A stretch of 54,893 nucleotides of DNA from Bacillus sp. 123MFChir2 (lineage in GTDB: Bacteria; Bacillota; Bacilli; Bacillales; Bacillaceae_G), in assembly GCF_000383235.1 (NCBI RefSeq), contig NZ_KB910951.1, positions 1 to 54,893 on the forward strand, written 5' to 3'. Below the pieces are notes generated by a model. That model was not told where the DNA came from, ran no database searches, and was given only the letters and a program-made list of their open reading frames with translations. Position 1 is the stretch's first letter. Every line of letters begins with the position of its first letter. The position numbers and the translations under genes are program-made. This document shows, one piece after another, positions 23,189 to 32,789 of the stretch.

Positions 23189-23218
23189 TGAATCGCCCCT
23201 TTATTATATTGTTGCATC

Positions 23219-23331
23219 GTTCTAACGTGCGGTAAAACTTCCATTTCATAATGAAAATCTAACCGCACGTTAGAACGTAAATTTGATAACTTAGCATGAG
23301 CAGGGTTTTTGTAAACCCTGCTCATGCTGTT
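23219..23331 (-). other. two strong hairpins in the nrdE-nrdF spacer
   Basis: GTTCTAACGTGCGGT (23219-23233) and ACCGCACGTTAGAAC (23262-23276) form a perfect 15-bp stem with a 28-base loop. A second perfect stem, GCATGAGCAGGGTTT with AAACCCTGCTCATGC (about 23298-23331), sits just upstream in the transcript. The second could act as a processing or attenuation site limiting nrdF expression. Confidence 0.65.
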
Positions 23332-23332
23332 T

Positions 23333-23527
23333 TATATATCCATTTTTTATTTTTCGACAGCTAAATCCCTGCTATGCAGAATAAAAAGTAACCTACACTC
23401 GTTTTCTCTTTCTGTTTTACTTCGCATGTGGCAGAAAAGGAACCTGACCGCTTCTATGCATGGCCAGATACTCTCTTCCATCCAAAAAGAGGGGTCTTAT
23501 CTCATTTTTTTATTGATGTATATATAA
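23333..23527 (+). repeat. bcr1-like repeat inside the nrd operon
   Basis: Near full-length plus-orientation copy: TTTTTATTTTTCGACAGC, CTGCTATGCAG, GCATGTGGCAGAAAAGG, CTGACCGCTTCTATGCATGG, CCAGATACTCTC, ending near a TTTTTTTATTG. It fills the spacer between nrdE and nrdF, transcribed antisense by the operon. Confidence 0.8.
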
Positions 23528-23913: not shown

Positions 23914-25125
23914 CCTATTGTTACTCTATCCAAATGATAGGGGATGGTCATTTCTGCCATCCTCTCATAGTTTCCCATGAGAGCAGACTGTATCATAAAC
24001 TACTATAATACCGTGGGTGGTTAGTCCCTGAGTGAATTTTTCTGTGGCAATCTTCGCAATAACAAATTAAATTATCTAAACTATTCGCTTCTAGGTAATC
24101 GTTACAAAGAACAAATGGTTTTATATGATGAACAGACATTTCTTGACCATATTCTTCCTCTGTAATCCCACACCTTTGACACATATAGTTATCCCTTTCA
24201 CGCGCTTCTCTTCTCTGATTTAACCAGTTAGGACCATAATATTTTCTATTTCCATGTTTATGTCCTAATCCAGTCCAATTCGGATTATTTTCAGCAGTCA
24301 TTCGTCCTATCATAGAGGAATGACTTGAGTAACATTCCCTACTGCAATACGAATACTCATGCTTTTCTTTTAAAGAAGGGGCTTTATAAAAGTTATTATT
24401 ACATGTTGGATGATCGCAAATAGTATTAAAGGTTTGTGGTTTCTTTTTACTATCCGTATAACATTTCCTCAAACAATACTTCGCCTTATCTTGTCGAGAA
24501 TTATGGACAATAAACTCCTTTCCACATGTAAGACAAGTCTTTTCTACTTTTTTATTTAGTAGCAGTTTGTGACATACTTTCGAACACGTTCTAGTTCTAG
24601 AGTTTTTCACTAGAAATTCTGTCTTACATATTTCACACTCTTTTTCTGTTCTCTGTTTAAATTGCTTATAGCATTTATCATCGCAAAATTTTTGCTCTTT
24701 TTTATTCGTTTCAAAATCTTTACCACAATATTGACACCTAATTACTTTTCTTTTTCGTTCACTTAAAGATCTACATTCTTTTGAACAAAATTTAGCTGTT
24801 GCTTATCTATATTGAGGAATTTTGAAATCCCCACCACAAAATTCACATATTTTACTAACCATAGTAGTTTCCCTCCACGTCAGTCGTTGAACCTTTATCT
24901 AGTTACCATCTAGATACTTGGCTGCGGATTTTCCATTCAAAAAACTACATTTAACTATTTCCCCATAAAATGCAATTTTTTAATATCTTCCCTTTTTACC
25001 GTACCGTTGAAGTTAGCAACGCCCTTACCTACATCACTGCGATAAGTTGGTAGAAAGATCTTTAGGAGTTCCCCGCAATTCGAAGGGTTCATTTTACACG
25101 TCACCGTATAAACGGGCTATTCCTA
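23914..25125 (-). other. group I intron in nrdE carrying an HNH endonuclease gene
   Basis: 1212 nt. The 5' junction is ATAGGT|TAGG and the 3' end is CAATAGG|TAT. Core elements are near-perfect: P (AATTGCGGGGAACTCC), Q (AATCCGCAGCCAAG), R (GTTCAACGACTGACG) upstream of the ORF, and S (GATACAGTCTGC) near the 3' end. The HNH ORF lies between R and S, i.e. in the P8 loop, a usual location. An in-frame TAG stands directly after the splice site, so active NrdE requires splicing. Confidence 0.92.
23993..24862 (-). pseudogene. intron-encoded HNH homing endonuclease with zinc-ribbon array, interrupted by a stop codon
   Basis: From ATG 24862, eight bases after the strong site GTGGAGGG, the frame reads 19 codons to a TAA at 24803-24805 and then continues open for 269 codons to 23993. 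The full product would be 289 residues: five Cys4 modules (such as CQYCGKDF...KFCDDKC and CLTCGKEF...KYCLRKC) followed by an HNH nuclease domain (CQRCG, VHHIKPF, NSLDNLICYCEDCHRKIH). The stop falls inside the first module. The 269-codon remainder has no good start, so the endonuclease is probably inactive, or made shorter from an internal codon such as GTG 24610. Confidence 0.85.
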
Positions 25126-26862
25126 ACCTATGCTTTGCGTCGGAGCCACTGCAAGTCTATATGAATGATACATTCCATTCTTTTGTACAAGTTCTTTTAA
25201 TTGTATCCATTCTTCCTGAGTCGGGATATGAATATCCTCAAACAGCTTCTGTACTTTTTCTGTACGAGGACGATAATCTGTCGTTTCATATTTTTCAAAG
25301 TATACGCCAGTTGCGTAATCTGATTTTTCAAAGTCTTTAAAGGTTTGTCCTTTTTCTTTAGCAATCAACATACTCTTTTCTATTGAGTAATAGTTCATAA
25401 TCATAAAGAACGTACGGACGTAATCTTTTGCTTCTTCACTTTCATAAGCAATTTTATTTTTCGCCAAATAGCCATGTAAGTTTAATGCACCAAGACCAAC
25501 TGAATGTAATTCTTCATTTGCCTTCTTCACAGTCGGTGCATTCGGAATGACTGTCATATCAGAAACAGCCGTTAAAGCCTCCATACCTGCATGAACTGCC
25601 TCACGAATTTCTTTATTCTCCATCACATTCACGATATTTAGTGAACCTAAGTTACAGTTAATATCACGGCGGATAATATCATCTGTACCATAATCATTTA
25701 TTTCAGATGTTTCTTGTAACTGGAAGATTTCTGTACAAAGATTCGACATCTTCACAGTTCCAATATCCTTTAACGGATGTTGTTTATTTGCATTTGATTT
25801 AAACATTAAGTATGGATAGCCAGACTCAAGCTGAATCATTGCAATTTTAATGAGCATATCACGTGTGCTAATATCAAGCTGTTTCTTCTTGATATTCGGA
25901 TTGCTCATCAGTTCGTCATACATTTCATCAATATCGATATCGTCTAAATGTTTTCCGTACTCTTTATACACTGTATAAGGAGCGAAAACATAGAATGGTT
26001 CGTTTTTCTCAGCAAGCTCAAAGAACTTACTTGGAACGATAATTCCGATGGAAAGAGACTGAATACGACTCTTCTCGTCGGCATTTATTTTTTTTGTATC
26101 GAGGAACTCAATAATATCCCAATGGAAGATATTTAAATATACAGCTCCTGCACCTTTTCGTTGCCCCAACTGATTCGCATATGAAAACGAATCTTCAAGT
26201 AATTTCATAACTGGTACAACACCGCTTGCTGCGTTCTCAATACCTTTAATTTGTTCACCGCGTGCTCGTAGTTTGCTCAAGTTGAGCGCTACGCCTCCAC
26301 CAATCTTACTTAACTGCATCGCTGTATTAATATTAAAGCCAATCGAGTTTAAGCTGTCGTCCATCTCTAACAAGAAACAAGACACCATTTCTCCTCTTCT
26401 GCTTCTACCTGCATTTAAAAAGGTTGGTGTCGCTGGTTGATAGTTTTGTTTGACAATCATGCTTGCAAATTGCTTCGCCTTTTGGGCGTTTCCTCGACCT
26501 AAGTATAACGATACAATTGCCACGCGATCAGGATAACTTTCTAAGTATTGCTTTTGGTCATTCGTTTTTAGCGCGTAATCTTTATAAAACTTAGATGCTG
26601 CCATATAAGATTGAAACTCGAACTTTTCGCCATATGTGATTTCGTATACAGCCTCTACCTCGTCCATCTTATATTCGCTTAACACATCATAGTAGTAGTC
26701 ATGCTCTAACATATACTCGATGCGTTCTGTCACGCTATCAAAACGAACGGTATTCTCTTTCGCCTCTTCCATAAAGACAGCCAGTGCCTCTTTATCTTTG
26801 TGAAGCTGATAGAACCCGTCCTGCATTTGCGTGATCTCATTATTCAATTCAATGTGTCGCAA
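25126..26862 (-). CDS. nrdE: NrdE, ribonucleotide reductase class Ib alpha subunit, exon 1
   Basis: The 579-residue catalytic part that reduces ribonucleoside diphosphates to deoxy forms. Visible: MVSCFLLEMDDSLNSIG with the redox cysteine, KIGGGVALNLSKLRARG, MSNLCTEIFQ with the radical cysteine region, INCNLGSLN with the partner cysteine, and PNAPT/HSYRLAVAPTQSIG at the exon end. The short N-terminus without an ATP cone is class Ib. Start ATG 26862 lies within the nrdI 3' end (14-base overlap), showing tight coupling. Confidence 0.96.
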
Positions 26863-32587: not shown

Positions 32588-32653
32588 CAAAACAATATCA
32601 AAAAAGACATTGTTCTCTGCTTAGTTTTTTATAGAGGGAGTTCGCGAACCTCT
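32588..32653 (-). promoter_or_regulatory. preQ1 class I riboswitch with terminator
   Basis: On the minus strand AGAGGTTCGCGAACTCCCTC (about 32653-32634) is followed by TATAAAAAACTAA (to 32621): the conserved P1 hairpin, C-rich loop and A-rich tail of preQ1-I. Next comes the terminator AACAATGTC, TTTTTT, GATATTGTT and a run of T (about 32615-32588). Bound preQ1 should favour termination and so reduce queCDEF expression. Confidence 0.92.
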
Positions 32654-32789
32654 CCCATGCTATGCATGGATTGTCTTCTTTAACTTGCACCTTATATTGT
32701 AACACACCGAGTATATGAGTGGAAAACGTCTATTTTTTCTGTTTTTTCCAAAAATAACATTCATTTTCTTCCATATTAATAGTATGATG

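What the first reader, a model, noticed from the sequence alone, without database searches (positions are those of the whole stretch)
23914..25125. nrdE group I intron with a five-zinc-ribbon HNH endonuclease broken by a nonsense codon
The intron ORF reads ATG (24862, strong ribosome site), 19 codons, TAA (24803-24805), then 269 open codons. Five Cys4 modules in tandem before an HNH domain is an unusual DNA-recognition layout; such arrays probably lengthen target contact. A single stop in module 1 suggests the element is at the decay stage of the homing cycle: splicing must be kept, because nrdE is essential, but mobility is lost.
Basis: partly seen in the sequence, partly recalled or inferred. 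Interest (0 to 1): 0.75.

Follow-up and report, generated by a model that had tools for sequence, protein, structure and literature searches.

The report
Broken homing-nuclease gene in nrdE intron
An intron of the self-splicing kind sits inside a bacterial gene for making DNA building blocks and still has the parts needed for splicing, but the gene for the DNA-cutting enzyme it carries is interrupted by an early stop, while mostly intact relatives of that enzyme sit in introns of similar genes elsewhere.

Summary
Confirmed. A 1,212-nt group I intron (25125-23914, minus strand) interrupts nrdE after APTQSIG; phage G nrdE is continuous across exactly this junction. Its ORF starts at ATG 24862 with a strong Shine-Dalgarno, stops at TAA 24805-24803, then stays open for 269 codons: four whole Cys4 modules, the second half of the broken first one, and an HNH domain. 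The ORF fills the P8 loop, and its Shine-Dalgarno is also the P3 3' strand.

The decay reading is supported by relatives. Nine loci in unnamed Bacilli genomes carry homologous HNH ORFs (7 open, 2 broken) in group I introns of another ribonucleotide reductase gene (class II, nrdJ) near the same APTxS motif; all nine keep the searched core motifs. Two Enterococcus phages have a two-module relative in an nrdE intron. The HNH lineage thus occurs in reductase introns of two classes, in ribozymes only about half alike.

Not supported: that tandem Cys4 modules before HNH are unusual; arrays of 2-6 recur in viruses and plasmids. No convincing internal start was found. Reads and same-species copies were not available; splicing and cleavage could not be tested, and the main surveys were not held. 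A new member of a known kind.

The parts
25126..26862 (-). nrdE exon 1 (class Ib ribonucleotide reductase large subunit), ends ...APTQSIG
   Evidence: ORF; colinear with phage G nrdE; start codon TTG 26862 is the tool's choice, not tested
23914..25125 (-). group I intron, 1,212 nt
   Evidence: Rfam RF00028 E 2.9e-9, 43 bits, under gathering 50; exon junction from phage G; helices
23566..23913 (-). nrdE exon 2, starts YIQNATASVMP
25123..25125 (-). in-frame TAG directly after the 5' splice site
   Evidence: sequence; such stops are described as usual in passages of PMC3073962 and PMC3984707
25082..25087 (-). P3 5' strand
   Evidence: paired with 24876-24871 in the fold of the shortened core, not in the full-length fold
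25072..25077 (-). P4 5' strand
   Evidence: paired in both folds
24923..24928 (-). P4 3' strand
   Evidence: paired in both folds
24882..24889 (-). R element and P7 5' strand
   Evidence: P7 pairs 24885-24882 with 23989-23986 in the full-length fold
24871..24878 (-). P3 3' strand, which overlaps the Shine-Dalgarno of the intron ORF
   Evidence: SD duplex -9.8 kcal/mol; for P3 in the shortened core
24861..24870 (-). P8 5' strand (10 bp), holds the first two bases of the start codon
   Evidence: 27 of 20,000 shuffles reach a 10-bp match; forms in the shortened core, not in the full-length fold
24803..24862 (-). first piece of the HNH ORF: ATG, 19 codons, TAA
24803..24805 (-). in-frame TAA inside Cys4 module 1
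24773..24847 (-). Cys4 module 1, split by the stop
24671..24736 (-). Cys4 module 2
   Evidence: model
24572..24637 (-). Cys4 module 3
   Evidence: model
24461..24535 (-). Cys4 module 4
   Evidence: model
24332..24418 (-). Cys4 module 5
   Evidence: model
24029..24181 (-). HNH nuclease domain
   Evidence: Pfam PF01844 E 4.9e-8; residues invariant or nearly so in alignments
23993..24802 (-). second piece of the HNH ORF, 269 codons plus TGA
23997..24006 (-). P8 3' strand, coding for the last residues of the ORF
23984..23989 (-). P7 3' strand

Best explanation
This is a group I intron that entered nrdE by homing. Its HNH homing-endonuclease gene lies in the P8 loop, bounded by a 10-bp P8 helix that holds both ends of the ORF. 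The ribosome site overlaps the P3 3' strand, so translation of the nuclease and folding of the ribozyme probably compete. The nuclease gene has fairly recently acquired a nonsense codon in its first Cys4 module. The ribozyme keeps P1, P3, P4, P6, P7, P8 and P9 elements (P10 is weak), so nrdE is probably still spliced while the intron can no longer spread by itself. The HNH belongs to a lineage found in group I introns of ribonucleotide reductase genes of two classes, near the conserved APTxS motif. Shown: intron, exon limits, ORF pieces, the stop, helices by complementarity and folding, related intron ORFs and two other broken copies. Inferred: splicing, former nuclease activity, loss of mobility, competition between translation and splicing.
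For: Rfam match and exon junction. All 16 cysteines of modules 2-5 and the HNH residues invariant among nine relatives are kept after the stop. AlphaFold model of the second piece, 19 aligned sequences: mean pLDDT 85, pTM 0.41, each module strand-strand-helix. P1 and P4 form in the folds of the full intron and of the shortened core; P7 forms in the first, P3 and P8 in the second. SD duplex -9.8 kcal/mol at ATG 24862 against 0.0 to -5.3 at the six in-frame ATG, GTG or TTG codons after the stop. Of nine nrdJ-intron relatives 7 have an open ORF and 2 are broken: L144 by one stop between modules 1 and 2, L141 by two stops in the matched stretch with modules 1-2 out of the HNH frame. All nine keep the P4, P7 and 3'-splice-site motifs within the mismatches allowed. 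HNH tree of 29 rows: 19 other-virus and plasmid rows group apart from the seven reductase-intron rows and the Paenibacillus plasmid protein, support 90/95, short of the tool's star; two far rows fall outside.
Against: No reads and no same-species copy were available, so an assembly error is possible. The intron and its nrdJ relatives all score under Rfam's gathering cut-off, and three of the nine nrdJ introns gave no Rfam match at E <= 0.1. P3 and P8 do not appear in the full-length minimum-energy fold, whose nested model cannot hold P3 and P7 together. The seven reductase-intron rows are not one clade in the tree (two changes, 0% of 200 bootstrap trees with one). The Paenibacillus relative shows no recognisable intron. 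Nuclease supplied in trans could still move the intron (PMC3984707 passage).
Confidence: 0.74

Rival explanations
1. The stop is a sequencing or assembly error and the endonuclease gene is intact.
For: A single stop in an otherwise kept frame of 269 codons with all 16 module cysteines after it; 7 of 9 nrdJ-intron relatives are open.
Against: Two of nine relatives are also broken, so real decay occurs in this family. I did not test assembly quality; no reads are available.
Confidence: 0.12
2. The gene still makes an active nuclease with fewer modules, by an internal start, reinitiation after the stop, or readthrough.
For: Relatives have fewer modules: nrdJ-intron proteins four, the phage Sw5 protein two. 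The frame after the stop is kept.
Against: In-frame ATG, GTG or TTG codons after the stop are at 24610, 24472, 24313, 24301, 24184 and 24139. The two that precede module 5 have SD energies of -0.4 and -3.7 against -9.8 at the true start; the best, -5.3, lies inside the HNH domain; no such codon lies between the stop and module 3. Rarer start codons were not scanned.
Confidence: 0.1
3. The early stop is favoured: it keeps ribosomes that start in P3/P8 from running through the P8 3' strand and P7, and so protects splicing of an essential gene.
For: The Shine-Dalgarno overlaps the P3 3' strand and both ORF ends lie in P8. A review reports that ribosome occupancy of core sequence in the td intron causes a splicing defect (PMC3073962 passage).
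Against: No population data. Seven of nine relatives keep a long ORF beside a kept core. A neutral nonsense change explains the same facts.
Confidence: 0.04

Closest known systems
nrdJ group I introns with four-module HNH ORFs in unnamed Bacilli genomes (L130-L133, L141, L142, L144-L146)
   Same: homologous HNH with tandem Cys4 modules, 39-45% identity; ORF between P7 5' and P7 3'; near the APTxS motif of a ribonucleotide reductase
   Different: class II gene (my recognition), inserted at APTG|STG, 9 nt upstream of the homologous point; ribozymes 48-55% identical to the window's (four of the nine compared); four modules; six of nine have an exact TATAAT before the ORF
Enterococcus phage Sw5 and vB_OCPT_Carl nrdE intron HNH
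   Same: intron in nrdE; HNH 64% identical over 80 residues
   Different: two Cys4 modules, extra C-terminal part, insertion near AP|NGSIAYVN (read); Sw5 ribozyme 48-53% identical
Paenibacillus urinalis plasmid HNH protein (WP_274336786.1)
   Same: 42% identity over 98% of the second piece, the widest match in the plasmid and phage searches
   Different: six modules; no group I intron recognised around it at E <= 0.1
PHROG 1271 HNH endonuclease family; HFTV1 five-Zn-finger protein
   Same: HNH with Cys pairs before it; phrog_1271 E 9.1e-28 for the window's second piece
   Different: HFTV1 protein is 29% identical; no intron was recognised at HFTV1's locus at the gathering score
I-BanI, B. anthracis nrdE group I intron
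   Same: group I intron in nrdE of a Bacillus
   Different: GIY-YIG nuclease of 253 aa in a 1,102-nt intron, from a table in PMC1995217 (passage); its insertion site was not compared
I-TwoI (phage Twort nrdE) and I-TevIII (phage RB3 nrdB)
   Same: HNH homing endonucleases in group I introns of reductase genes (PMC1995217 table passage); the T4 copy of I-TevIII is inactive by a deletion while the RB3 copy works (PMC2988022 passage)
   Different: sequences not compared here

Membership tests
group I introns | conserved catalytic core with P3, P4, P6, P7, P8 and R/S elements | tested here: met
   Rfam E 2.9e-9, though 43 bits is under the gathering score of 50; P3, P4, P7, P8 strands found; P1, P4, P7 in the full-length fold and P1, P3, P4, P8 in the shortened core
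group I introns | U at the 5' splice site paired in P1; G at the intron end | tested here: met
   GGU|UAGG and AAUAGG|UAU; U25126 pairs with G25117 in P1
group I introns | self-splicing | not testable with these tools
   needs RNA work
HNH homing endonucleases | HNH catalytic motif with its metal ligands | tested here: met
   Pfam PF01844 E 4.9e-8; invariant and nearly invariant columns
HNH homing endonucleases | gene lies in an intron whose insertion site is the nuclease target | tested here: inconclusive
   location shown; target cleavage not testable
HNH homing endonucleases | complete reading frame | tested here: not met
   TAA after 19 codons; therefore filed as a broken copy, not as a working member
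multi-Cys4 HNH proteins (PHROG 1271 like) | several CxxC...CxxxC modules before HNH | tested here: met
   phrog_1271 E 9.1e-28; module inventory

The most novel reading that the evidence does not exclude
One homing-endonuclease lineage with a variable-length Cys4 array has followed the conserved APTxS loop of ribonucleotide reductase between class II genes of Bacilli and class Ib genes of phages and Bacillus, moving between different ribozymes. Adding or losing modules (2, 4, 5 and 6 seen) is how it re-registers on targets shifted by a few codons.
Probability: 0.3. Interest if true: 0.55.

Novelty: new member of a known kind. Interest (0 to 1): 0.4.

Why it matters
It gives a clear example of a homing intron whose nuclease gene is broken, with open and broken relatives at a nearby site in another reductase gene, so gain and decay can be counted. 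The shared HNH lineage in class Ib and class II reductase genes makes target shifting by module arrays testable. The overlap of the ribosome site with P3 is a simple case of possible conflict between nuclease translation and splicing.

Tried and rejected
Looked for the host's own genome: none held. Looked for close copies of the intron ORF in the species-genome collection with six exact peptide patterns: only two Weissella matches over 66 residues of HNH. Looked in viral contigs: six distant HNH relatives, none for the plasmid protein's patterns, no exact match to a 33-nt core stretch. Intron DNA against phages and plasmids: partial matches only (with exon included mostly hits nrdE); the nrdE-nrdF region by megablast against phages: no match. 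Tried to reach close kin of the host through nrdE: one protein search and six DNA searches; best DNA identity 72%, so close kin were not reached. Same intron lineage as the nrdJ introns: rejected on present evidence, the ribozymes are about half alike and no nearer than to the Sw5 intron. NCBIfam gave only matches far under their cut-offs. PDB by sequence: best 5h0m, an HNH endonuclease, E 5.5e-6. Rfam at the gathering score on 40 loci, among them most multi-module relatives, found group I introns only in L031 and L033, but it also missed L010, which does hold one, so these negatives are weak; at E <= 0.1 none was found in L009 and eight multi-module viral loci. The first HNH tree (105 rows) lost L131-L133 through a faulty motif filter of mine; the second (29 rows from 27 loci picked by hand plus the window) put them back. 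The module count is rough: some zero counts come from wrong frames (L043) and several contigs are near copies (L093/L094/L096, L046/L053, L048/L059). For L146 the tool counted one TAA; my scan finds no stop before 40 residues past the VHH motif, near the natural end, so L146 is counted as open. L143, the eighth match, was dropped from the nrdJ count: two modules, no reductase exons or core motifs seen. Papers that probably bear on this but are not held: Tourasse and Kolsto 2008, Nord 2007, Landthaler 2002; so whether this very intron is already described could not be checked. Nine text searches were made; by title and start of abstract none listed a paper on tandem-module HNH proteins in reductase introns, which is no proof of absence.

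Full report
OBSERVATION. All features lie on the minus strand. nrdI (27208-26849), nrdE exon 1 (26862-25126), the intron (25125-23914), nrdE exon 2 (23913-23566) and nrdF (from 23188) follow each other (nrdI and nrdF named by my recognition of the proteins). Exon limits were tested with phage G, whose nrdE has no intron: 120 residues before the junction match 55110-55469 and 115 residues after it match 55470-55814, with nothing between. In one search I count 100 rows that match at least residues 4-578 of exon 1 (47-70% identity, 98 genomes of 299); in all 100 the open frame is 693-786 aa, so it runs on past this point and the site is not interrupted. Partial rows were not counted. Rfam Intron_gpI matches at E 2.9e-9 in a local search but at 43 bits, under the gathering score of 50.

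ANATOMY OF THE INTRON. Strands of P3, P4, P7 and P8 can be placed. P3 and P7 form a pseudoknot in group I introns (established knowledge), so a nested fold can show only one of them. The full-length minimum-energy fold contains P1, P4 and P7 but not P3 or P8; the fold of the core with the ORF loop cut short contains P1, P3, P4 and all ten pairs of P8, but not P7. P10 is weak (duplex -1.4 kcal/mol). P8 is a perfect 10-bp match; 27 of 20,000 shuffles of its two 36-nt surroundings gave one as long. Its 5' strand includes the first two bases of the ATG and its 3' strand codes for the last residues of the ORF, so the ORF fills the P8 loop. The Shine-Dalgarno (duplex -9.8 kcal/mol, the lowest value of the positions scanned) overlaps the P3 3' strand. 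A ribosome on the ORF and a folded ribozyme should therefore exclude each other (inference). The first intron codon in frame with exon 1 is TAG. A review states that most group I introns have such a stop, and that ribosome entry from an intron ORF can harm splicing (PMC3073962, passages).

THE BROKEN GENE. ATG 24862, 19 codons, TAA 24805-24803, then 269 codons to TGA. The frame after the stop is not chance: in 2,000 shuffles of the intron the longest open run was 138 codons. It keeps the 16 cysteines of modules 2-5 and the HNH residues that are invariant among nine aligned relatives. About 5.6% of single substitutions in it would create a stop, so the absence of a second stop is expected (P 0.64) at 1% neutral change and unlikely (P 0.01) at 10%: the break is recent on that scale, if nothing selects for the frame. 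Six in-frame ATG, GTG or TTG codons follow the stop; none combines a good ribosome site with a useful position. The AlphaFold model of the second piece (19 sequences, mean pLDDT 85, pTM 0.41) gives each module as two strands and a helix, with uncertain arrangement of the modules to one another. Fold comparison could not be run.

RELATIVES. tblastn found 54 phage and 36 plasmid records. The widest match is a six-module HNH protein on a Paenibacillus urinalis plasmid, 42% identical, with no group I intron recognised around it. Two Enterococcus phages carry a two-module relative inside a split nrdE; Rfam sees the Sw5 intron weakly (23 bits, E 0.0026). In 398 genomes of the class of a Weissella genome (Bacilli), 11 matched at E <= 1e-8; the best four (L130-L133) are ORFs with four modules in group I introns (Rfam E 1e-9 to 1.5e-6 for the 5' parts, all under the gathering score) that split a class II reductase gene at ...APTG|STGTMVG.... 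In 249 genomes of one order 8 matched at E <= 1e-15; 7 are such introns (two already known) and one, L143, is a two-module protein outside any seen intron. That makes nine nrdJ loci. All nine keep the searched P4, P7 and 3'-splice motifs within one or two mismatches. Rfam at E <= 0.1 matched L130-L133, L141 and L145, not L142, L144 or L146, whose intron status rests on motifs and on 62-73% identity to the others. Seven have an open ORF. L144 has one in-frame stop between modules 1 and 2; L141 has two stops inside the matched stretch and its first two modules are not in the HNH frame. L133 and L145 are 94% identical, so the nine are not nine independent cases. The name nrdJ (class II) is my recognition of the exon proteins, not a family search.

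WHAT THIS SAYS. A broken nuclease gene beside a kept ribozyme is seen three times in this family (window, L141, L144), as the homing-cycle idea expects. In the second tree 19 other rows fall apart from the seven reductase-intron rows and the Paenibacillus protein with support 90/95, short of the tool's star; the seven do not form one clade (0% of 200 bootstrap trees), and the plasmid protein sits nearest the window's (84/64). The window's ribozyme is only 48-55% identical to four of the nrdJ introns and no nearer to them than to the Sw5 intron; about 100 nt of its core are 75% identical to group I introns of Bacillus phages, in phage Grass at the end of the annotated terminase large subunit. 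So nuclease and ribozyme seem to have different histories. The three insertion points, AP|NG, APTG|S and APTQSIG|Y, lie within about 15 nt of each other on the aligned motif, which I recall as the substrate-phosphate loop of the reductases.

HOW COMMON THE LAYOUT IS. So arrays of several Cys4 modules before HNH are a recurring design.

LIMITS. The species was not identified by any search; the gene content looks like the Bacillus cereus group to me (recall). Whether this exact intron is already in print could not be settled: the main survey papers are not held. RNRdb reports over 100 curated group I introns from its reductase entries (PMC2795772, passage), and a review notes recA, nrdE and nrdF introns in the B. 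cereus group (PMC3984707, passages), so an nrdE intron as such is not new.

VERDICT. The wider point, a multi-Cys4 HNH lineage in reductase introns of two classes, is the part worth following.

Noticed in passing
window 23218-23277 and 23286-23335: Two large hairpins in the nrdE-nrdF spacer (28-nt arms 86% complementary; 23-nt arms 87% complementary). The terminator-like match at the second is on the plus strand, so against nrdEF; the scan found 1 where shuffles give 1.0. Could be a B. cereus-type repeat (recall).
   Followed up: partly
window 32615-32658: PreQ1 riboswitch, 53 bits, upstream of a queC-like, queD-like and queE-like gene run on the minus strand (gene names recalled).
   Followed up: no
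L130, L132, L133, L144, L145, L146 upstream of the intron ORF: Six of nine nrdJ introns hold an exact TATAAT between P7 5' and the ORF start (not tested against chance), as if the nuclease had its own promoter; the window's ORF starts about 20 nt after P7 5' and has no room for one.
   Followed up: partly
L041 1-6019: Enterococcus phage Carl has nrdE in pieces separated by an I-HmuI-like ORF and the two-module HNH ORF, and nrdF in two annotated pieces with another ORF between.
   Followed up: no
L031 2956-3310: Group I intron (74.5 bits) overlapping the annotated end of the terminase large subunit of Bacillus phage Grass, not annotated in the record.
   Followed up: no
L134 1387-2163: A three-module HNH ORF lies between two parts of a phage tape-measure-like protein (protein named by recall), possibly another split gene.
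   Followed up: no
phage search: Four matching records of Prevotella phages and four records at 90-95% identity appear in the tallies (probably the same ones) but not among the listed rows; they were not looked at.
   Followed up: no
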